Source: Actinomyces bowdenii
GTDB lineage: Bacteria > Actinomycetota > Actinomycetes > Actinomycetales > Actinomycetaceae
NCBI RefSeq assembly: GCF_017592395.1
Contig: NZ_JAGFOU010000002.1
Location: 62,001-126,000, forward strand
Direction of reading: 5' to 3'
Length of the DNA: 64,000 bases
Shown: positions 4,761-20,165 of the stretch, piece by piece
Layout of the letters: each line of letters starts with the position of its first letter
How positions within the stretch are numbered: position 1 is the first letter of the stretch
Translations under genes and position numbers: made by a program
Notes under the pieces: model-generated
Databases searched by the model: none
The model's input: the letters and a program-made list of their open reading frames with translations, nothing else
What the model was told of the DNA's origin: nothing

Positions 4761-6380
4761 TCAGGATCCCTGGGCCGTGACCCCCAGGTCGCTCATCCGG
4801 CGCTCGGTCCAGGGGCTCACCGCGTACAAGGCCATGGCCACCACCAGGGTGACGGCCCCCAGCCAGTAGTAGAAGGTCGCGTCCGAGACCCCGCCGGTGC
4901 GCTCGATGACGACGGCGGCGATGCCCTGCCCCGTCGCCGAGGTCAGCAGCCACAGCGCCATGGCCTGGGAGGCGAAGGACTTGGGCGCCAGCGCCGTGGT
5001 CACCGACAGCCCCACTGGGGACAGGAAGAGCTCGCCGACGGTCTGGAAGGCGAAGACGGCGGCCAGGAACCACCACGGCGCCAGGCGGCCGGTATCGGCA
5101 CCGGGCCACCACTGGAACCCGGCCCCCATGATGAGGGCCGAGACGCCGATGATGAGCACGGCGGTGGCGAACTTGACCGCCGTGGAGGGGAACCTGCCGG
5201 CGCGGCGGGTGAAGAGGAGCCCCAGCACCGGGGCGAGGAGGACGACGACGGCCGGGTTGACCGACTGGTAGGCCTCGGGGGAGATCACCCAGCCCAGGGA
5301 GGGGATGAGCCCGTCGGTGTTGGACTCGGCGAAGGTCGCCATCTTGCCGGAGGCCTGCTCGAAGATCATCCAGAACAGGACCGCGCCCACCCACAGGGGG
5401 ATGTAGGCGCGCAGGTGCCCGCGCTCATGCGCGGTGACCTTCCTGGAGCGGAACATGACCACGAAGTAGGCGAGTGAGGAGCCCGAGGCCACCAGGAACA
5501 GGGTGTAGGCGATCGCGGAGGACATCTCGCCGGTGATGGCGGTCAGGAGGGCCAGGAGCGCGGCGAAGCCCGCGACGGCCGCCAGGGATCCCAGCAGCAG
5601 CCTCTGCCTCTCCTTGCCCCGCAGCGGGTTGGGGATGTCGAAGGCGAAGGCCGACAGGCGGCTGCGCCCGTAGAAGAAGGCCACCAGGGCCAGGGCCATC
5701 CCCACCGCCGCGGCGGCGAAGCCGGCGTGGTAGCCGTAGTGGGCCTTGAGCCAGCCGGTGACCAGCGGGGAGAAGAAGGAGCCCACATTGACCGACATGT
5801 AGAACAGCTGGAAGCCGGCATCCCGGCGGGGGTCGTCGTCATCGTAGAGCCCGCCCACGATGGTGGACAGGTTGGGCTTGATGAAGCCGGTTCCCACCGC
5901 CACGCACACGATCCCCGCCCAGGCCAGGGGGCCCAGGGGGACCGCCAGGAGCAGGTGGCCCGTCATGATGATGACGCCGCCGTAGAGGGTGGAGGGCCAG
6001 GGGCCGATGATGCGGTCGGCGAAGATCGCCCCGGGGATCGCCAGGAGGTAGACCGCTGCGCCGTAGGCGGCCAGGATCACCTGCCCGGTGTTCTGGTCGG
6101 TGCCCAGCCCGCCGTTGGCCACCGTGTCGGTGATGAAGTACAGCAGGATGGCCCGCATCCCGTAGTAGGAGAAGCGCTCCCACATCTCGACGTTGAGCAT
6201 CCAGGGCAGGCCCTTGGGGTGGCCGAAGAGGCCGCGGTCCTCCCGCGAGGGCGAGGTGCGCAGGGTTGCGGGCCGCCAGCGCGAGGCGACGGCGCCCTGA
6301 GGGTCTCCCGAGGGCCTCAGGGGCGCGGAGGGCTCAGGCGGATCTCCGTGCTCTGCGGGCGCTGAGGTGCGATGGGACAT
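4761..6380 (-). CDS. POT-family di/tripeptide:proton symporter
   Basis: Proton-driven oligopeptide importer of the POT/PTR2 family (DtpT-like), 539 residues. The family signature is present: MWERFSYYGMRAILLYFI in TM1 (the ExxERFxYYG proton-coupling motif) and the PTR2 segment FQLFYMSVNVGSFFSPLVTG. About 14 hydrophobic segments are visible, including TGFIKPNLSTIVG. The ATG at 6380 is chosen for the GGAGGAG ribosome binding site about 7 nt upstream; a cytoplasmic Pro/Ser-rich N-terminus of about 60 residues precedes TM1. It stands alone between the kinase-like gene and lldD. Confidence 0.92.
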   Translation of the reverse strand: MSHRTSAPAEHGDPPEPSAPLRPSGDPQGAVASRWRPATLRTSPSREDRGLFGHPKGLPWMLNVEMWERFSYYGMRAILLYFITDTVANGGLGTDQNTGQVILAAYGAAVYLLAIPGAIFADRIIGPWPSTLYGGVIIMTGHLLLAVPLGPLAWAGIVCVAVGTGFIKPNLSTIVGGLYDDDDPRRDAGFQLFYMSVNVGSFFSPLVTGWLKAHYGYHAGFAAAAVGMALALVAFFYGRSRLSAFAFDIPNPLRGKERQRLLLGSLAAVAGFAALLALLTAITGEMSSAIAYTLFLVASGSSLAYFVVMFRSRKVTAHERGHLRAYIPLWVGAVLFWMIFEQASGKMATFAESNTDGLIPSLGWVISPEAYQSVNPAVVVLLAPVLGLLFTRRAGRFPSTAVKFATAVLIIGVSALIMGAGFQWWPGADTGRLAPWWFLAAVFAFQTVGELFLSPVGLSVTTALAPKSFASQAMALWLLTSATGQGIAAVVIERTGGVSDATFYYWLGAVTLVVAMALYAVSPWTERRMSDLGVTAQGS

Positions 6381-11658: not shown

Positions 11659-13353
11659 TCAGGCGGGCAGGTAGCCGCCGAGCCAGCCCTGGGAGGCGAT
11701 GAGCACCAGAGTGCACAGCACCAGCAGCAGCCCCAGGGAGTAGGGGGCGACCTTGCGCAGGATGTCGGCCTCGGTCCCCGGGGCGTCCACCGCCGTGGAG
11801 GCGATGGCCAGGTTCTGGGGCGAGACGATCTTGCCCAGGCCCCCGCCGATGGTGTTGGCGGCCAGCAGGATCCGCGGGTCCAGCCCCGCGCCCTGGGCCG
11901 CGGTGGCCTGGAGGTTGGCGAACAGCGCTCCCGCGCTGGTGGCCGAGCCGGCCACCGCCGTGCCCAGCCAGCCCAGGACGGGGGACAGGAAGGCATAGGC
12001 CGCCCCCGTGGTGGCCAGGGCCGCGCCGATGGCCGTGGTCTGGCCGGAGAAGTTCATGACATAGGCCAGGGCCATGACGCTGGCGATGGTCACCACCGCC
12101 AGGCGCAGGGTGCGGAAGGTGCGCAGCAGGGTCGCCGCGCTCAGCCGCGGGCTCATCTCGAAGCGCCCCGGCACGGAGCGCAGCGAGTAGACGGCGGTGA
12201 CGATGAGGGCGGTCACCAGGATCCAGGTGCCCGGGTTGGACAGGGTCTGGAGGGTGTAGACGGCGCTGGAGGAGGGCTCTCCCTGGGCGGTGAGCAGCTG
12301 CCCGTGGACGCCGGGCCACTTGATGGGGACATCGGTGGCCTTCAGGGCCGAGCTCAGGTCGAGGCCCAGGCTCCACAGCTTGGTCACGGCGATGATGATG
12401 ACCACCAGGACGTAGGGCAGCAGGGCCAGCACCACGCGCTCGCGGTCAGGGGCGTCGTCAGTGGCCACCCGGGAGCGGTGCTCCTGGGGGGTGGTGGGGG
12501 TCCACACCAGCAGGAAGAGGTAGGAGGCGGCCAGGCCCAGCAGGGAGGCCAGGACCGCGGTGAGCTCGTAGGAGATCGACGGCGTCAGGTAGTGCCCGGC
12601 GCCGGTGGCCAGGCCCGCCACGATGGCCAGGGGCCACAGCTGGCGCACGCCCCGCACACCGTCGAGGATGAACAGGAGCACCAGGGGGATGAAGGCGCAC
12701 AGGACCCAGGTCAGGTGGCCCATGAAGGAGGCCACGACCACCGGCTCCTGGCCGCCGAGCCTGCCCGCGGTGGTCACCGGGATGGCGATGGCCCCGAAGC
12801 CCACGTTGATGGCGTTGCCGACCATGACCACGGCGGCGGACCTGAGCTTGGGCAGGCCCAGGGCGGCGACCATGGCCGCGGCGATGGCCACGGGCGCGCC
12901 GAAGCCCGCCAGGCCCTCCAGCAGCCCGCAGAAGGAGAAGGCGACGATGAGCGCCTGGGCCCTCATGTCGCCCTTGCCGATGGTGTTGAACACGGCCCGC
13001 AGGTCGTCCGAGCGGCCCGAGGCCTCGGTGAGGTTGTAGAGCCAGACCGCCGCGATGATGATGTAGACGATCGGCACCAGGCCCATGGCCACGCCCTGGG
13101 CGGCGCTCATCGCGGTCATGGGGACGGGCATGCCGAAGAAGGCGACGGCGATGATGCAGGCCAGGGCCAGGGAGATGAGCGAGCACCAGTGCGTGGCCAC
13201 CTTGAGCACACCCATGAGCGCGAAGAAGGCTATGAGTGGCACCAGCCCCACTGCGGCGGTGAGGAACACGCTGCCGCCCACGGCCGTCGTCGAGGGCGTG
13301 AAGGAGGCGAGGGGTGCGATGCTCATGGCTGGTAAGAGGAGGACAGGCTCCAT
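11659..13353 (-). CDS. lldP: L-lactate permease (LctP/LldP family)
   Basis: Lactate:proton symporter of the LctP family, about 564 residues with some 13-14 hydrophobic helices. Recognisable segments are GLLEGLAGFGAPVAIAAAM (the conserved gaGFGaPVAI motif), SAAVVMVGNAINVGFGAIA, GWLGTAVAGSATSAGALFAN and ANTIGGGLGKIVSPQNLAIA. The start at 13353 is chosen for AGGAGAG about 7 nt upstream; the frame is open further but those residues look non-coding. Upstream of lutA on the same strand, with a terminator between, so it is probably a separate transcript in the lactate module. Confidence 0.93.
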   Translation of the reverse strand: MEPVLLLPAMSIAPLASFTPSTTAVGGSVFLTAAVGLVPLIAFFALMGVLKVATHWCSLISLALACIIAVAFFGMPVPMTAMSAAQGVAMGLVPIVYIIIAAVWLYNLTEASGRSDDLRAVFNTIGKGDMRAQALIVAFSFCGLLEGLAGFGAPVAIAAAMVAALGLPKLRSAAVVMVGNAINVGFGAIAIPVTTAGRLGGQEPVVVASFMGHLTWVLCAFIPLVLLFILDGVRGVRQLWPLAIVAGLATGAGHYLTPSISYELTAVLASLLGLAASYLFLLVWTPTTPQEHRSRVATDDAPDRERVVLALLPYVLVVIIIAVTKLWSLGLDLSSALKATDVPIKWPGVHGQLLTAQGEPSSSAVYTLQTLSNPGTWILVTALIVTAVYSLRSVPGRFEMSPRLSAATLLRTFRTLRLAVVTIASVMALAYVMNFSGQTTAIGAALATTGAAYAFLSPVLGWLGTAVAGSATSAGALFANLQATAAQGAGLDPRILLAANTIGGGLGKIVSPQNLAIASTAVDAPGTEADILRKVAPYSLGLLLVLCTLVLIASQGWLGGYLPA

Positions 13354-13631
13354 TGGATGCTCTCCTGGTCGGTGACATGTCAGGCGTGCGGGGCACGGGA
13401 CCATGCGGTGGCGGGACTTTGGGCCCTTGAGCACGGCGCCACGCACGCGCATGAGATCCTGCCACAATCGCCGCTGCCGTGCTCCGTGAGTATGCCTGCG
13501 GGGCATGCAGCCCGTTTCTATATTGTGACCATATTTATGGGCAGATTACTTCCGGTGGCGCTCGTGGTGAGGCACACTACGGGACGCATCCGTGACCCCG
13601 CGGTGCAATCCCGCCATTGAAGGAGATCCCA
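13354..13631. promoter_or_regulatory. Divergent intergenic region, lactate permease / secreted-protein operon
   Basis: The 278 bp between the two divergent starts contain an unusually AT-rich block at about 13512-13555 (TATATTGTGACCATATTTAT), the probable site of one or both promoters; I cannot assign -35/-10 boxes with certainty. GACATGTC, a perfect 8-bp palindrome, lies close to the permease start. Confidence 0.35.
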
Positions 13632-14075
13632 ATGAAGCGAGCACTTCACGTGCTGGTCGGCGCAGTGCTGGCCGCCACACTCATCGCCCCCAGCGTCTCG
13701 GCCGCCCAGCAAGGGGTGGAGGGGGGCGGGTGGTCCGAGACCACCGGCAGCTACTCGACGAGCTCCGGCGGGATCAGCGCCAAGCGCTCCTTCCGCGAGG
13801 GCGTGCCCCACCACTCCGGCGAGGCCCAGCGCAAGTCCATCAACGGCACCACCCACAAGCGCGCCCACGGCTGGACGCGGTGGAACGGCGTGTGCCACCA
13901 CACCACGGCCCAGCTGGAGCACCACTGGCCCAGGGGGCAGGTCATCTCCTCCTCCGGGCGGGTCAAGCGGTGGCACTACTCCGAGGCCTGGAGCTCGTGG
14001 GTGGCCTACAACCCCAACGCCCGGTCCAACGGCTACGGCCTGGCACGCACCTACTACGGGCGCAGCTGCAGCTGA
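13632..14075 (+). CDS. Small secreted cationic Trp/His-rich protein, candidate bacteriocin
   Basis: 147-residue precursor with a clear Sec signal peptide: KRALHVLVGAVLAATLIAPS and an SVSA-AQQ cleavage site after residue 24. The mature 123 residues are rich in Trp (7), His, Arg, Lys, Ser and Gly and contain two cysteines (88 and 146) that could form a disulfide. Gly-Gly-Trp at the mature N-terminus and the aromatic, cationic make-up recall lactococcin 972-type bacteriocins, but the sequence is longer and I see no confident match. The ATG at 13632 follows AAGGAGATCCC. The stop overlaps the next start (TGATG), tying it to two membrane proteins and an ABC ATPase, the usual partners of lactococcin 972-like genes. 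Confidence 0.7.
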   Translation: MKRALHVLVGAVLAATLIAPSVSAAQQGVEGGGWSETTGSYSTSSGGISAKRSFREGVPHHSGEAQRKSINGTTHKRAHGWTRWNGVCHHTTAQLEHHWPRGQVISSSGRVKRWHYSEAWSSWVAYNPNARSNGYGLARTYYGRSCS

Positions 14076-15064
14076 TGCCCCTGCTCCTGCGTCGAGCGGT
14101 GGCCCCGGCCCTGATCCCCACGGCGATCATCGCCGTGGGGATCGGCCTGCTGCTCCTGCTGTGCGTCTTCCAGGGCGAGATGGCCCTGGCCAGGCAAGAG
14201 GGCAGCCGCGGCTACACCCCCCGGGCGCTCAGCGTCCAGGCGGCGCCCGATGAGGTCATGCGGGCCCTGAGCGCCTCGGGACTGGACGCCCACGCCTATG
14301 TGGAGGACGGGCCGGGCCGCAGGATCCTCGCCCTGGCCCCCGGGGCGGACCTGTCGCTCCCGCTCCACGGCGGGCAGGTCCGGGAGGGCGCCGGCCCCCA
14401 GGCGCTCATCGGCAGTCAGGTGGGCGCTGCCGAGCCACTCGAAGGCGTCGGGGCCGCTCAGGGCGCCGCCTCCGCGCAGGTGGTCGATGACGGCCGGGCC
14501 GTCATCGTCGAGGGGCGCCGCTACCCGGTCACCGCAGTGCTGGGGAGCCGCGAGCGCAGCCTGCTCCAGTACGAGACGCTCATCATCGACAACCAGCGCT
14601 TCGCCGCCTCCCATGCCGCGGTCGTCGTCGTCGACGGCCCGCAGGCCCGTGAGCTGGTCGAGGAGCACCTGGCCGGCGCCCGCTGGCAGCCCCAGGACCA
14701 GGGCGTGGCGCGCCGGCTCTCCCTCGACACCTTCTCCCCGGTCCTGCTGCCCCTGGGCGGTCTGGCCGGCGCGCTGAGCCTGTGGGCGGCTCTCGGCCTG
14801 GTGGTCGCCTGGCGGCGCCAGGAGGCGCGGGTCAGCATCATCCTGGGGCGCACGGCTCTGGCCGCGCACCTGGCCACGGGCGCCCGCCTCGCGGGGGCGG
14901 GCCTGCTGGGAGCCGCCCTGGCGGTGGCCGGGGTGCATGCGGCGGTGGGGCTGCCGGGCGGCGGGCGCACCCTGGGCGTCCTGGGGGCCGCCCTGGGCGG
15001 CCTGGCGGTTCTGGGGGCCGGGCGCCTGGTCATGGAGAGCCGGCTGGAGGGCGCGGCGCCATGA
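14075..15064 (+). CDS. Bacteriocin-associated membrane protein 1
   Basis: 329-residue integral membrane protein, not recognised by family with certainty. A single N-terminal helix (about residues 9-30, LIPTAIIAVGIGLLLLLCVF) is followed by an extracytoplasmic domain of about 200 residues and three C-terminal helices (from about 228, 269 and 295). This layout matches MacB/FtsX-like permease halves. The start overlaps the secreted-protein stop as TGATG and its stop overlaps the next start as ATGA. By position it should act with the ATPase, in export of or immunity to the small secreted protein; this is inference. Confidence 0.72.
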   Translation: MPLLLRRAVAPALIPTAIIAVGIGLLLLLCVFQGEMALARQEGSRGYTPRALSVQAAPDEVMRALSASGLDAHAYVEDGPGRRILALAPGADLSLPLHGGQVREGAGPQALIGSQVGAAEPLEGVGAAQGAASAQVVDDGRAVIVEGRRYPVTAVLGSRERSLLQYETLIIDNQRFAASHAAVVVVDGPQARELVEEHLAGARWQPQDQGVARRLSLDTFSPVLLPLGGLAGALSLWAALGLVVAWRRQEARVSIILGRTALAAHLATGARLAGAGLLGAALAVAGVHAAVGLPGGGRTLGVLGAALGGLAVLGAGRLVMESRLEGAAP

Positions 15065-16359
15065 TCCATGAGATGGTCCTGGACCTGCGGGCCCGCCCCG
15101 CCGCCCTGGGGGTCAAGATCGCCTTGACCGCCCTGGTGAGCCTGGCGGTCTTCGCCGTGGGGGCTGTGGGGGCCCGCACGGAGGCGGAGGTGGGGCGCGT
15201 GGCGGACTCCCGCTCCGGGCGGGTCCTGTACGGGCTGGTCGACACCCTGGCCGATCCCGAGCGCTACGAGGAGTTCCGCGCCGAGGAGGGCGGCACCCGG
15301 TCGGTGGCGGCCTTCTACGACGCCCTGAGCAGCTCGACGAGCTTCGAGTTCCCCTCCCTGTTCAACCACATGGTCCCGGTGGTCGACTTCCCCGGCGGAG
15401 AGCAGTACCGGCATGTCTACGAGGGCCTGGGAGGCCCTCTGGAGCCCTACCCCGATCCGCTGGGGCGCACGGTCACCGACATCAAGTCCTTCCAGCTCAA
15501 CCAGGACGCCTACGAGTTCTACGGGATCGAGCTCAGCCAGGGGCCGGGCCTGGACTGGCAGGCCGTCGACTACTCCAGCGGCGAGCCGGTGCCGGTGCTG
15601 GTGGGCTCCTCCCTGGCCTCGGTCTACAGCGTCGGGACGAGTCTCCAGGGGTGGCTGGGCGGCCACCCGCTGGAGTTCCGGGTGGCCGGGGTGGTGGACT
15701 CGCGCTCGGCGGTCTACCTGCCCGGGCAGCCCAGCACCTTCCTGGATGAGGCGCTCATCATCCCCTACCCCCACAGCCTGGGGCAGTGCGAGGGCTACGA
15801 CATGGGCCTGTGCAACTCATTGGCCTTCGCCATGGTCAACGGCACCATCGCCGCGCCCGCCTCCATGCGGCCCTCCGAGCTGCTCGACATCCTCAATGCC
15901 ATGGGCGCGGCCTGCGGCTTCGAGGACTACACGCTGCTGGGCACCCCGATCTACACCGTCCAGCTGGGGCTCATGCGCGACTTCGTCGAGCGCCAGGGCG
16001 CGCTGGTCCGCGCGATCGCGGTGGCGGTGGCCCTCTGCTCCCTGACGGCCCTGGCGGGAGTGGGGCTGCACCTGTGGCGCGGGCGCCGCCCGGTGGTGCG
16101 CGCCTGGCTCCTCCTGGGGTGGGCGCCCGGTCGCATCGCCCGCACCCTGACGGCCCTGTGGGTGCGCGACGCCGTCATCCTGGCCGCCATCGTCATCCCC
16201 CTGGTGGCGGCCTCGGCGAGCTTCGACGGCAACTGGGGTCTGGTGGGCCTGGGTGCGGGGCTGGGGCTCATCGCGCTGGAGGGCGCGGGGCACCTGGCGG
16301 CGGTCCGGCGGCTTGCGCGCGGGGGCGCGGTGCGCGGCGGAGGAGATGAGGAGCCATGA
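15061..16359 (+). CDS. Bacteriocin-associated membrane protein 2
   Basis: 432-residue membrane protein with the same layout as its upstream neighbour. One N-terminal helix (VKIALTALVSLAVFAVGAVG, about residues 18-37) precedes an external domain of about 270 residues with two cysteines in GQCEGYDMGLCNS and one in AACGFED. Three C-terminal helices follow (about 320, 365 and 390). This is typical of the integral membrane proteins found beside lactococcin 972-like bacteriocins. Translationally coupled on both sides (ATGA at 15061 and 16356). Probably pairs with the preceding protein as a heterodimeric ABC permease. Confidence 0.72.
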   Translation: MIHEMVLDLRARPAALGVKIALTALVSLAVFAVGAVGARTEAEVGRVADSRSGRVLYGLVDTLADPERYEEFRAEEGGTRSVAAFYDALSSSTSFEFPSLFNHMVPVVDFPGGEQYRHVYEGLGGPLEPYPDPLGRTVTDIKSFQLNQDAYEFYGIELSQGPGLDWQAVDYSSGEPVPVLVGSSLASVYSVGTSLQGWLGGHPLEFRVAGVVDSRSAVYLPGQPSTFLDEALIIPYPHSLGQCEGYDMGLCNSLAFAMVNGTIAAPASMRPSELLDILNAMGAACGFEDYTLLGTPIYTVQLGLMRDFVERQGALVRAIAVAVALCSLTALAGVGLHLWRGRRPVVRAWLLLGWAPGRIARTLTALWVRDAVILAAIVIPLVAASASFDGNWGLVGLGAGLGLIALEGAGHLAAVRRLARGGAVRGGGDEEP

Positions 16360-17015
16360 TCGAGCTGGATGTCAGGCGCAAGGAGTTCCGTGAGCCCAAC
16401 GGGCAGGTGCGCACGCTCTTCGAGGGCCTGCGCCTGTCGCTGGGGCAGGAGGACCACTCGGTGGCGGTGTGCGGGCGCTCGGGCTCGGGCAAGACGACGC
16501 TGCTGCGGATCCTGGCGGGCCTGGACACCGCCTTCGAGGGCCGCTACGTCTTCCGGGGCCAGGAGCTGGGCCTGAGGGCCGCACCCATGGCCCGCCACCG
16601 TGCGGCGCATATCGGGTACATCACCCAGCGCTTCGATCTGCTGACCGACCGGCACGTGCTGGACAACGTGGCCATGGCGGCGCAGGACCGCGGGCGCTCC
16701 CGGCGCCGCCAGCGGGCCCTGTCCGCCCTGGCGGCGGTGGGCCTGGAGGGGTACGGCGGCAAGGATGTGCGGCGCCTGTCCGGGGGAGAGGCCCAGCGGG
16801 TGGCCATCGCCCGCGCCGTGGTGGGGCGGCCCGACCTGGTGCTGGCCGATGAGCCGACCGGCTCCCTGGACGAGGGCACCGAGACCGAGATCCTGGAGCT
16901 CTTCGCGGACCTGCGCGAGCGCGGGACGCGCTTCGTCATCGCCACCCACTCCGAGACGGTCTCCTCCTGGTGCGCCCGCAGCCTGCGCATCGAGGGCCGC
17001 GCCCTGCGGGACTGA
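16356..17015 (+). CDS. ABC transporter ATP-binding protein of the secreted-protein operon
   Basis: 219-residue ATPase of the LolD/MacB-like class. Walker A GRSGSGKTT (about 38-46), Q-loop in YITQRFDLLTD, signature LSGGEAQRVAIARA (about 141-154), Walker B and D-loop LVLADEPTGSLDEGT (about 163-177) and switch histidine in IATHSE are all intact. Such short ATPases pair with permeases that have large external domains, as encoded just upstream. It overlaps that gene by ATGA and ends the operon. Expected to energise export, or removal of the peptide from the membrane (immunity). Confidence 0.9.
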   Translation: MIELDVRRKEFREPNGQVRTLFEGLRLSLGQEDHSVAVCGRSGSGKTTLLRILAGLDTAFEGRYVFRGQELGLRAAPMARHRAAHIGYITQRFDLLTDRHVLDNVAMAAQDRGRSRRRQRALSALAAVGLEGYGGKDVRRLSGGEAQRVAIARAVVGRPDLVLADEPTGSLDEGTETEILELFADLRERGTRFVIATHSETVSSWCARSLRIEGRALRD

Positions 17016-17058
17016 GGGCTCCTGGGGCCTGCCGGGGGGCCGGGCGGGTGCGCCCGAC

Positions 17059-18003
17059 TCAGGCCGGGCCCCCTCCCAGCACAGCGGAGACGCTGAGATC
17101 GGGGCCGGTGGTCACCCTCAGGGCGGTGACGCCCACCTCCCCCTCGGGGCTGCGCAGCGGCACCCGCCTGCCCTGGAGGCCCTGGAGGTCCTTGGCAGCG
17201 ACGGCCAGCATCGCCGCCACCACCGGGTGGCGCGAGGCGACCCTCACCTGTGCCAGCGTGGCGACCAGCGCTGGGCGCCCGCCGGTCGGCGCCCCGCCTG
17301 AGCCGATGGGCCCGCTGCCCGGGCCACTGCCGGCGCCGGGCTGGTGGGGATCGGCCTCCTGCACGTCCACCTGGGCGCCGACCCGCACGCGGGCCCGCAG
17401 CGGGCCCCGGCGGATCCGGCCGCTGCCGCTGATCCGCAGGGCCCCCGGTGCCGCCCCGCTGATCTCCAGCTCCACGTCGTCGAGCGCGCCCCTGCCCTCC
17501 AGCAGGTGGGTGCCGAGCCGCTCGATGGCGGTGGCCAGGCCCGCCTGGGAGATGCGGATCTCCACCTGGCCGTGCAGCGGGGACTGGGCGCTGGGCTCGG
17601 CGAGGACCAGGCGCCCGCTGCCGTCCTCCTCCCGCCAGGCGATCGCCAGATCGCGGAGGCGGGCATCGAGATGCACCGGCGCTCCCAGGACCTCCATGGG
17701 CCGGGCCCTCACCTGGAGGCGGCGCAGCCGGCCCGGTGCCGGGACGGGCGCGCCCCCTGGCTCCTCCTGCGGTTGCCGCTCGGGCTCGTGAGCACCGGGC
17801 GGGCCCAGCGGGGAGGTGATGGCCGTGCCACTGGCGTCGACATCGATGAGGTCGATGTCCGGGGCGTCGGGGCGGACCAGGATGCGCATGGCAGTGGGGT
17901 TGCTCAGCACGGGCGCGACCGCCTCCGCGATGCCCTGGCGCAGGCGCAGGGACAGCCCGTCACTGGTCCTGGGGAGGGGGAGCCGGCCGAGGGGGATGGT
18001 CAC
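17059..18003 (-). CDS. LmeA/DUF2993-like protein, tentative
   Basis: About 314 residues. Alternating beta-type segments (VEIRISQAGLATAIERLGTH, DDVELEISGAAPGALRISG, TALRVTTGPDLSVSAVLGG) resemble the DUF2993/LmeA fold of actinobacterial lipid-binding proteins of the cell envelope, but no signal peptide or diagnostic motif is visible, so this is only a suggestion. Two disordered Pro/Gly-rich insertions lie near residues 72-90 and 220-240. The GTG at 18003 is preferred because TAGGGT lies 6 nt upstream; a GTG one codon earlier is also possible. It converges with the bacteriocin-like operon. Confidence 0.55.
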   Translation of the reverse strand: MTIPLGRLPLPRTSDGLSLRLRQGIAEAVAPVLSNPTAMRILVRPDAPDIDLIDVDASGTAITSPLGPPGAHEPERQPQEEPGGAPVPAPGRLRRLQVRARPMEVLGAPVHLDARLRDLAIAWREEDGSGRLVLAEPSAQSPLHGQVEIRISQAGLATAIERLGTHLLEGRGALDDVELEISGAAPGALRISGSGRIRRGPLRARVRVGAQVDVQEADPHQPGAGSGPGSGPIGSGGAPTGGRPALVATLAQVRVASRHPVVAAMLAVAAKDLQGLQGRRVPLRSPEGEVGVTALRVTTGPDLSVSAVLGGGPA

Positions 18004-18009
18004 CACCGC

Positions 18010-18015
18010 ACCCTA
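18010..18015 (-). promoter_or_regulatory. -10 hexamer, LmeA/DUF2993-like gene
   Basis: TAGGGT on the minus strand lies 6 nt before the GTG at 18003: leaderless pattern. Confidence 0.4.
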
Positions 18016-18021
18016 CCCGGT

Positions 18022-18063
18022 GGTGGGGCCCGGCAGGAGCGGATCGTCCCGCCGGGCCCCACC
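18022..18063 (-). terminator. Terminator hairpin after glpK
   Basis: GGTGGGGCCCGGC and its exact complement form a 13-bp stem with a 16-nt loop, about 60 bp beyond the glpK stop. Confidence 0.6.
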
Positions 18064-18121
18064 GCCGCGCTCGGCGGCTCAGCGGCTCAGCGCGCGGGCC
18101 GCCCGAGGCGCTGCGCCGGGA

Positions 18122-19645
18122 TCACTCCACGACGTCGTCGTCCACCCAGTCCAGGGTGCGGGTGACCGCCTTGTTCCAGTTGCGGAAGAGGCGGTCGCGC
18201 TCGGCCTCGTCCATCTGCGGGGTCCAGCGCTTGCCCTCGGCCCAGTTGTCGATGACGTCCTGGGTGCCCGACCAGAAGCCCACGGCGATACCGGCGGCGT
18301 AGGCCGCGCCCAGGGCGGTGGTCTCGGTGACCTCGGGCCGCACGACGGGCACGCCCACCTGGTCGGCCTGGAACTGCATGAGCAGCTCATCGCGGGTCAT
18401 GCCGCCGTCGACCTTGAGCTCGGTCAGGGCCTGGCCGGAGTCGGCGTTCATGGCCTCCAGGACCTCGCGGGTCTGGAAGGCGGTGGACTCCTCCACGGCG
18501 CGGGCGATGTGCCCCTTGTTGACGTAGCGGGTCAGGCCCACCAGGGCGCCGCGGGCATCGGGGCGCCAGTGCGGGGCGAACAGGCCGGAGAAGGCGGGCA
18601 CGAAGTAGGCCCCGCCGTTGTCCTCCACGCTCCTGGCCAGCTCCTCGACATCCTTGGAGTCCTTGATGATCCCCAGGTTGTCGCGCAGCCACTGCACCAG
18701 GGAGCCGGCCACCGCGATGGAGCCCTCCAGGGCGTAGACCGCGGGCTCGCCCTCGATCTGGTAGCACACGGTGGTCAGCAGGCCGTTGGTGGAGTGCACC
18801 GGCTCGGTGCCGGTGTTCATGAGCATGAAGCAGCCGGTGCCGTAGGTGTTCTTGGCCTGGCCCCTGGTGAAGCAGGCCTGGCCGAAGGTCGCCGCCTGCT
18901 GATCCCCCAGGATGCCGCTGATGGGGGTGTCCACCAGCAGCCCGTTCTTGCGGCCGTGGCCGAAGATGCCCGAGGAGGGCTTGATCTCGGGCAGCATGGA
19001 GACCGGGATGCCCATGTCGGCGCAGATCCCCGGGTTCCAGTCCAGGGTGTCGATGTTCATGAGCATCGTGCGCGAGGCGTTGGTGACATCCGTGGCGTGA
19101 ACGCCGCCGTTGACGCCCCCGGTGAGGTTCCACAGCACCCAGGTGTCCATGGTCCCCATGAGCAGGTCGCCGGCCTCGGCCCGCTCGCGCGCGCCCTCGA
19201 CGTTCTCCAGGATCCAGGTGACCTTGGGGCCCGAGAAGTAGGTGGCCAGGCCCAGGCCCACGCGCTCCTTGTACTTGTCGGGGCCCTCATCGCCGGCCAG
19301 GCGCTCGCAGATCCTCTGGGTGCGGGTGTCCTGCCAGACGATGACGTTGTAGACCGGCTCGCCGGTGGTCTTGTCCCACACCACGGCGCTCTCGCGCTGG
19401 TTGGTGATGCCCACCGAGGCGATCTGGTGGCGGTTGACCTCGGCGGCGGAGAGCACCCCGGCGACGACGTCGCGCACATTGCGCCAGATCTCCAGCGGGT
19501 CGTGCTCGACCCAGCCGGCGCGCGGGAAGATCTGCTCGTGCTCCTTCTGGTCCACCGCCACGATCCGCCCGGAGTGGTCGAAGAGGATGGCGCGCGAGGA
19601 GGTGGTGCCCTGGTCGATCGCCAGGACGTACTTCTTCTCAGTCAT
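18122..19645 (-). CDS. glpK: Glycerol kinase GlpK
   Basis: FGGY-family kinase that phosphorylates glycerol to sn-glycerol 3-phosphate, 507 residues. The N-terminal phosphate-binding motif is [15 protein letters not shown] (about 8-22). The glycerol site is QDTRTQRI and the later [13 protein letters not shown], and the C-terminal ATP motif is [18 protein letters not shown]. The ATG at 19645 follows GGAAAGGA. It shares the region with glpD at 24185 and a DeoR and a SorC regulator; no glycerol facilitator is seen in the window. Confidence 0.96.
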
Positions 19646-20165
19646 GGGGGTCCTTTCCATGGTGTGACAGGTGGGGTGCTCCGGCAGCAGTCATCGCGGC
19701 CCGGGGCGCGCTCGTGCGCGGCCCGGATGGTCGGGGAGGCGCGGCCCACCGGGGCCCGCATCCGGGCCCGGCCCGGGCGGGGGCGCCTATGGCGGGGCTG
19801 GTCTCATGCTCGACTCGCTTTCCGACACGTCCTTGTGCACTGCCGATCCCGTGGCGCCCTCGGGGATGGCTCCCGACGCGGCTGCCCGCGTGCCGCCCTG
19901 GGCAGGGCGCCGTCTCGAGTGGTCCCCGTGGTGCAGCACCGGGCTGCGGCGGGGCTCTATGGGATGGGAGGCTACCCAGTCGCCGTCATGCGTGGGAAGG
20001 CGGTGAGGGCGAGGGACCCGCCCGCTGGCAGAAGGTGCGCCGCTGACCGCGGGGCTGTGCACGGATGTGCGGAGCCCCGGTGCAGATGCCCACGAGGGGC
20101 GGGGCATGGGGTAGGAATGCCTCTCAAGCGATGGTGCGCCTCACATGAGGTGTCACGTCGGGCAT

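What the first reader, a model, noticed from the sequence alone, without database searches (positions are those of the whole stretch)
13632..17015. Four-gene coupled operon: secreted cationic protein, two FtsX/MacB-like membrane proteins, ABC ATPase
All four genes overlap by TGATG or ATGA, so they are made in fixed ratio. The first product is a 123-residue mature secreted protein with seven Trp, many His/Arg/Lys and two Cys; it is not an obvious known bacteriocin. Lactococcin 972-type loci have the same partners, but their peptide is much shorter. This may be a new bacteriocin or a cell-wall-targeting toxin with its own export/immunity pump. It lies beside the lactate module and so may be linked to lactate-rich oral niches.
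Basis: partly seen in the sequence, partly recalled or inferred. Interest (0 to 1): 0.8.

Follow-up and report, generated by a model that had tools for sequence, protein, structure and literature searches.

The report
Bacteriocin-like operon with two-permease pump
A bacterium of the Actinomycetaceae carries a four-gene cassette, also found on plasmids of unrelated bacteria, that looks like a secreted antibacterial protein plus a dedicated membrane pump protecting its producer; the protein matches no family model searched, and its activity is untested.

Summary
The four coupled genes at 13632-17015 are real: a Sec-secreted 147-aa protein (about 123 aa mature), two MacB/LolC-like permeases and an ATPase. 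The secreted protein has no credible match in Pfam, NCBIfam, PADLOC, PHROGs or PDB sequences. It does have relatives with the same partners in the same order: in another Actinomycetaceae genus and on plasmids of Paenibacillus, Priestia and Sarcina (27-48% identity). In the window's genus it is in 1 of 49 genomes, and the relative with the most similar flanks has a clean empty site (3.48 kb versus 62 bp). Of eight distinct loci found with both permeases and the ATPase, five have an intact secreted gene, two a broken one and one none; transporter genes of the intact/broken pairs show dN/dS 0.08-0.25. No intact secreted gene found lacks the transporter. This fits a toxin with a separately useful immunity pump. 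Best reading: a bacteriocin-type toxin plus an ABC machine that works outside the membrane and protects the producer. It resembles lactococcin 972 loci in plan but is not a member by sequence, length or permease number. The lactate link is not supported; positive charge and cysteines are not family traits. Activity, immunity and target are inferred, not shown.

The parts
13573..17054 (.). stretch present here and absent from congener G003, where 62 bp stand in its place (cassette gained or lost as a unit)
   Evidence: flank matches end at query 1914 and resume at 5397 of window:11659-19660; G003:C1:1959578 and 1959641; no shared 7-mer between the two edges, direct or inverted
13620..13625 (+). 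ribosome-binding site AAGGAG of the first gene
   Evidence: read from sequence
13632..14075 (+). secreted 147-aa protein, putative bacteriocin of a family without a Pfam or NCBIfam model (GGW[ST]E ... W..vyHyT.A..E ... SGR ... A.TY[YW]G)
   Evidence: relatives in L029, L039, L041, L043
13632..13703 (+). Sec signal peptide (24 aa, ends VSA)
   Evidence: read by eye; comparable signals in the four intact relatives
13704..14072 (+). mature secreted protein, 123 aa, pI 10.2
14075..15064 (+). permease A (329 aa): one N-terminal and three C-terminal hydrophobic segments around a ~180-aa outer domain
   Evidence: relative L041:3943-4983 has below-cut-off MacB_PCD and FtsX matches
15061..16359 (+). 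permease B (432 aa): MacB/LolC-like, TM1, a ~270-aa outer domain, then C-terminal TM segments
16356..17015 (+). ABC ATPase (219 aa) of the LolD / lactococcin 972 exporter / FtsE clade
   Evidence: TIGR03608 157.2 bits, TIGR02211 156.6 bits, both below cut-off

Best explanation
It is a mobile bacteriocin cassette. Gene 1 encodes a toxin exported by the general Sec pathway. Genes 2-4 form a LolCDE-like ABC machine: a pair of MacB-type permeases plus an ATPase dimer. It does not carry the toxin across the membrane but uses ATP-driven movement of its outer domains to pull the toxin, or toxin-target complexes, off the producer's membrane surface, giving self-immunity. Cells that lose the toxin can gain from keeping the pump. 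The likely target is a surface-exposed envelope component, possibly lipid II as for lactococcin 972. Shown here: gene set, secretion signal (by sequence), conservation of the set, presence or absence as a unit, and broken or missing toxin genes beside open, constrained transporter genes. Inferred: antibacterial activity, immunity function, subunit arrangement, target.
For: Same four genes in the same order in four other backgrounds across two phyla, three of them plasmids. Patchy distribution: 1 of 49 genus genomes for genes 1, 2 and 3; permease B in 4 of 213 and the secreted family in 3 of 213 family genomes (one a remnant); secreted family in 1 of 396 phylum genomes, the window's own. Clean empty site in G003. 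Toxin gene broken with three open transporter genes in G078 and Sarcina p1, absent in G179; dN/dS of transporter genes 0.084-0.245 in the two intact/broken pairs. Permease B model has YbbAP, LolE and LolC as its six best Foldseek matches (E 0.05-0.5, none at 0.001 or better, low-confidence model); MacB_PCD/FtsX hints in relatives; a MacB outer domain is the best PDB sequence match of the permease B profile at E 0.12. Best ATPase model is that of putative lactococcin 972 exporters, level with LolD. Type VII ABC proteins work in the extracytoplasmic space (PMC5985334, abstract and passages). A Bce-like ABC transporter raised the Lcn972 IC50 fivefold in Lactococcus (PMC7438565, passages).
Against: No activity data. 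The secreted protein has no credible profile match to a bacteriocin family. It is not faster-evolving than its transporter, as toxins often are (recalled): 48% identical to G079 against 30 and 32% for the permeases, and 34% to P. polymyxa against 21 and 17%. dN/dS includes time before the toxin was lost. G179 could be another use of the transporter. In the analogous pneumococcal scb locus, 157 of 571 genomes have scbBC alone, the B and C products had not been verified as immunity in any lactococcin 972 locus, and D39, which has scbBC without scbA, is inhibited by streptococcin B (PMC11796350, passages and section 12); its scbBC promoter lacks the competence control, so lack of expression may explain this. 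The authors of PMC7438565 suspect that protection from Lcn972 is indirect (passages). Only eight distinct full loci were found.
Confidence: 0.6

Rival explanations
1. Genes 2-4 are mainly a dedicated exporter or release pump that frees the secreted protein from the outer membrane face or cell wall, with no immunity role.
For: Some MacB-type pumps export peptides and proteins from the extracytoplasmic side (PMC5985334); the four genes are tightly coupled here; the secreted protein is more conserved than the permeases.
Against: Open, constrained transporter genes where the toxin gene is broken or absent; a pure exporter would have no use there. No MacA-like adaptor gene among the four.
Confidence: 0.17
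2. The secreted protein is a sensor or accessory subunit of a resistance pump (as suggested for YsaD with YsaCB), not a toxin.
For: A small secreted peptide in an operon with a Bce-like ABC transporter modulates signalling in Lactococcus and is dispensable for resistance (PMC7438565, passages); transporter without the secreted gene exists here too; the secreted protein is not fast-evolving.
Against: No two-component genes were noticed by eye beside the four genes, though no search for them was made; plasmid carriage and very patchy presence fit a toxin better.
Confidence: 0.15
3. A true but highly diverged lactococcin 972 bacteriocin, enlarged at the N-terminus (a version of the best explanation, not exclusive of it).
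For: Same plan by eye (Sec signal, GGxW start, W..YH, terminal aromatic YY). With sets of 7 and 8 lactococcin sequences hhalign scores were 20.3 and 17.9 against shuffled-column means of 11.0 and 10.6, 0 of 60 shuffles as high in either; global E 0.07-0.075 against 0.68-0.86 reversed.
Against: Probability 7.1 and 3.2%, alignments short and in different registers; with all 15 lactococcin sequences it falls to 1.6%, score 16.0, and the global score 6.3 barely exceeds the reversed 4.5. No PF09683 match in the genome; two permeases instead of one.
Confidence: 0.2
4. Cell-envelope housekeeping protein (adhesin, hydrolase or inhibitor) with its own transporter.
For: Secreted, aromatic-rich.
Against: No family match; not found in the other 48 genus genomes searched; on plasmids of unrelated bacteria.
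Confidence: 0.06

Closest known systems
Lactococcin 972 (class IId) loci: bacteriocin, ~650-aa permease, ATPase
   Same: Sec-secreted protein with a GGxW-like start; dedicated permease and LolD-clade ATPase; often on plasmids; toxin-less loci known (157 of 571 pneumococcal genomes have scbBC only, PMC11796350 passages)
   Different: mature protein 108-126 aa rather than ~66; no PF09683 or TIGR01653 match; two half-size permeases instead of one large one
LolCDE / MacB / YbbAP type VII ABC machines
   Same: permease layout with N-terminal TM, large outer domain and C-terminal TMs; separate LolD-like ATPase; two different permeases, as in LolCE (recalled)
   Different: no adaptor or outer-membrane partner gene in the operon; in 7 of 8 loci found, next to a secreted-protein gene or its remnant
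BceAB / YsaDCB peptide detoxification modules
   Same: ABC transporter protecting against cell-wall-acting peptides; BceAB is proposed to free a cell-wall precursor from bacitracin (PMC7438565 passages)
   Different: one large BceB permease (size recalled) and a two-component system; none noticed here
AS-48EFGH and YknXYZ (from the table and passages of PMC5985334)
   Same: MacB-like transporters linked to export of or protection from antimicrobial peptides in Gram-positives
   Different: other gene make-up, with an adaptor protein in YknXYZ; sequences not compared here

Membership tests
Lactococcin 972 family bacteriocin | match to PF09683 or TIGR01653 | tested here: not met
   P0001 and L029, L039, L041: 0 families in Pfam and NCBIfam up to E 10 (L043 not run); PF09683 in 7 of 49 genus genomes but not in G000
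Lactococcin 972 family bacteriocin | profile-profile similarity to family members | tested here: not met
   hhalign probability 7.1, 3.2 and 1.6% with 7, 8 and 15 members; positive control within the new family 98.6%
Lactococcin 972 family bacteriocin | Sec signal and mature length of about 66 aa | tested here: not met
   signal present by eye, but mature length 123 (108-126 in relatives at assumed cleavage sites)
Lactococcin 972 family bacteriocin | three genes: bacteriocin, one ~650-aa permease, ATPase | tested here: not met
   two permeases of 329 and 432 aa versus single permeases of 648-709 aa
Lactococcin 972 family bacteriocin | binds lipid II, inhibits septum formation | not testable with these tools
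   experiment needed
Type VII (MacB-like) ABC transporter | ATPase of the LolD/FtsE/MacB clade | tested here: met
   five best NCBIfam models are L_ocin_972_ABC, LolD, FtsE, LolD (PRK11629) and YbbA, each below its curated cut-off
Type VII (MacB-like) ABC transporter | one N-terminal TM, large outer domain, three C-terminal TMs | tested here: inconclusive
   hydropathy: P0002 7-39, 222-246, 272-295, 300-320 (fits); P0003 13-40, 312-339, 362-391, the last C-terminal helix only in a low-confidence model
Type VII (MacB-like) ABC transporter | MacB_PCD / FtsX profile or fold match | tested here: inconclusive
   window permeases 0 Pfam families; relatives L039 and L041 below cut-off; Foldseek top six YbbAP/LolE/LolC at E 0.05-0.5

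The most novel reading that the evidence does not exclude
A new class of large (108-126 aa) secreted antibacterial proteins, the GGWSE family, moving between Actinomycetota and Bacillota as a four-gene cassette, with immunity from a LolCDE-like machine of two permeases that strips the toxin from its envelope target. Boldest form: the C-terminal part is a lactococcin 972-like domain diverged beyond sequence recognition.
Probability: 0.38. Interest if true: 0.65.

Novelty: new variant of a known kind. Interest (0 to 1): 0.5.

Why it matters
If true, it adds a family of secreted antibacterial proteins, without a Pfam or NCBIfam model, found in both Actinomycetota and Bacillota. It also gives natural toxin-intact and toxin-broken pairs for asking whether the ABC genes beside such bacteriocins are immunity or export; [quoted passage not shown] A LolCDE-like pair of permeases protecting Gram-positive cells from a protein toxin would widen the known uses of type VII ABC machines.

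Tried and rejected
Membership in lactococcin 972: tested by hmmscan, whole-genome PF09683 search and profile-profile comparison with 7, then 8, then 15 sequences, with shuffled and reversed controls. Four fetched sequences (L052, two of L053, L056) were first dropped because my cutting pattern did not find their start; adding them and three more congeners weakened the signal. Lactate-module link: rejected. PADLOC anti-phage filing: genes 1-3 no match at E 0.01, gene 4 only generic ATPase hits. PHROGs: best for P0001 E 0.12; the Sarcina relative had E 0.0081 to a family over its signal-peptide residues 2-33, taken as chance. PDB sequences: best match of the secreted-family profile E 0.12, to a pre-mRNA-processing factor, taken as chance. 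Viral spread: 4 completed scans of viral contigs and 2 tblastn searches of phage records found no relative. Structure of the mature protein: mean pLDDT 36.5 from two sequences, all-beta, unusable, so no fold search was made. Permease B: mean pLDDT 45.5, best blocks 64-76, used only as a hint. The class search (4 of 394 genomes) also gave two weak matches, G455 and G567 at E 6.5e-4 and 5.1e-4, which I did not follow. P0001 itself was not run against the plasmid collection; relatives there came through P0003 and then the plasmid secreted proteins. Bacillota chromosomes were not surveyed beyond the capped genome contigs pattern scans, so abundance there is unknown. Some papers were seen in search listings only; of PMC11796350 I read passages and section 12, of PMC5985334 and PMC7438565 passages. 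No paper in those nine listings was recognisably about this family; they cover only the open-access library and I did not read the other listed papers.
Full report
What is there. The first gene encodes a 147-aa protein with a typical Sec signal peptide by eye (24 aa, ending VSA). Genes 2 and 3 encode membrane proteins with an N-terminal hydrophobic segment, a large outer domain and C-terminal hydrophobic segments. Gene 4 is an ABC ATPase whose two best NCBIfam models are the ATPase of putative lactococcin 972-type bacteriocin exporters (157.2 bits) and LolD (156.6 bits), both below cut-off.

Families. Genes 1-3 have no match in Pfam or NCBIfam up to E 10 and none in PADLOC at E 0.01. PHROGs gives P0001 a best E of 0.12, and a four-sequence profile of the secreted family has a best PDB sequence match of E 0.12, to a pre-mRNA-processing factor.

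Relatives. In the window's genus the secreted protein and both permeases were found only in the window's own genome (1 of 49). G079 (L029) has all four genes, the secreted protein being 48% identical. G078 (L031, same genus as G079) has the transporter, but its secreted-protein gene has lost an internal stretch and the frame changes across the junction. G179 (L030) has the transporter only. A profile search for the secreted family in the same 213 genomes hit only the window, G079 and the G078 remnant, and in 396 genomes drawn from the phylum only the window.

Plasmids. tblastn of permease B against 72,556 plasmid records gave five. Sarcina p6 (L039) and two Paenibacillus polymyxa plasmids with identical secreted proteins (L041, L049) hold the whole four-gene set. 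Sarcina p1 (L040) keeps the transporter and a truncated start of the secreted gene. Searching with the Paenibacillus secreted protein added Priestia megaterium, where the first permease crosses the start of the circular record and all four genes are present. The five distinct intact secreted proteins share GGW[ST]E, a W..vyHyT.A..E block, SGR and a terminal A.TY[YW]G; identity of the other four to the window protein is 48, 35, 34 and 27%. As a positive control, the two Actinomycetaceae sequences match the three Bacillota ones at hhalign probability 98.6%, E 7.9e-16.

More distant loci. Terrisporobacter (L048) has a 111-aa secreted protein that resembles the family by eye (YHYTSA, terminal FYGK) but not by profile (probability 16%), next to one permease B relative (E 7e-8 to the Paenibacillus one). 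Macrococcoides canis (L042) and G475 (L038, found at E 3.8e-9 in a class search that hit 4 of 394 genomes) have permeases related to permease B (probability 97.3%) and an ATPase next to a different small secreted protein, intact in L042 and split by a frame change in L038. So related permeases seem to serve more than one kind of secreted protein.

Mobility. G003, the congener with the most similar flanks (93 and 90%), has 62 bp where the window has 13573-17054. The cassette was gained or lost as a unit; presence in 1 of 49 favours gain. No 7-mer is shared, direct or inverted, between the two edges. G+C and GC3 resemble the neighbours, so a donor was probably high in G+C or the gain is not recent. 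The neighbours, including the lactate permease, are in G003 without the operon, so the lactate link is not supported.

Why toxin and immunity. Of eight distinct loci with both permeases and the ATPase, five have an intact secreted gene, two a broken one and one none; no intact secreted gene was found without the transporter. In the two pairs that differ in toxin state, transporter genes show dN/dS of 0.245, 0.124 and 0.111 (Sarcina) and 0.197, 0.084 and 0.136 (G079/G078). A transporter kept in use after the toxin is gone fits immunity better than mere export; these ratios also include time before the loss. The protein carries its own Sec signal. The permease B model, low in confidence but best in the outer domain, has YbbAP, LolE and LolC as its top six Foldseek matches, none at E 0.001 or better; MacB-type machines act in the extracytoplasmic space (PMC5985334, abstract and passages). 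I infer that the pump removes the toxin from the producer's envelope.

Against. The secreted protein is more conserved than the permeases (48 against 30 and 32% to G079; 34 against 21 and 17% to P. polymyxa), so it does not look like a fast-evolving toxin. In pneumococcus, D39, which keeps scbBC without the bacteriocin gene, is inhibited by streptococcin B producers (PMC11796350, section 12); its scbBC is not induced by the competence peptide (passages), so poor expression may be the cause, but the case shows that a kept transporter need not mean resistance. Protection of Lactococcus from Lcn972 by YsaDCB (fivefold IC50) is thought by its authors to be indirect (PMC7438565, passages).

Relation to lactococcin 972. 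Seven of 49 genus genomes carry PF09683 loci, the window's genome none. These seven and five of seven fetched from plasmids have one permease of 648-709 aa and an ATPase; the S. salivarius permease is annotated as two ORFs, and the S. cadmiisoli stretch names neither in an incomplete gene table. Profile comparison gives probability 7.1, 3.2 and 1.6% with 7, 8 and 15 members. The first two exceeded shuffled and reversed controls, but the alignments are short, in different registers, and the signal weakens as members are added. It works like such a locus in plan; membership is not met.

Limits. No activity, target or immunity experiment exists here. The mature-protein structure could not be predicted. 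Bacillota chromosomes were not properly surveyed, so the count of loci is a lower bound.

Noticed in passing
L019-L025 (congeners G033, G021, G025, G040, G024, G038, G026): Seven of 49 genus genomes carry lactococcin 972-type loci; in six the peptide has a long extra N-terminal stretch (...P[DE]DA...) between signal and the GGxW core, which may be a propeptide.
   Followed up: partly
L038:5700-8611 and L042:523-3267: Another small secreted protein type (GAAWNYSGSGY...), the L042 copy without a credible Pfam or NCBIfam match, sits beside a permease B relative and ATPase in Macrococcoides canis; in G475 the secreted gene is split by a frame change while the transporter is open.
   Followed up: partly
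L048:3102-4776: A 5.6-kb Terrisporobacter plasmid carries a 111-aa secreted protein (YHYTSA ... FYGK, no Pfam match) and a single permease B-like gene, no ATPase annotated, next to a VanZ-family gene.
   Followed up: partly
window 11659-19660 versus congeners: The stretch between lactate permease and glpK varies among genus genomes: about 0.3 to 3 kb where the two are close, tens of kb or more in others. It holds an E1-E2 ATPase in G020 and a pyridine nucleotide-disulphide oxidoreductase with rhodanese domain in G047 and G026, so it may be a gene-exchange site.
   Followed up: partly
L053:2817-4201: A Streptomyces plasmid carries two divergently placed, very similar lactococcin 972 family genes beside one permease-ATPase pair.
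   Followed up: no
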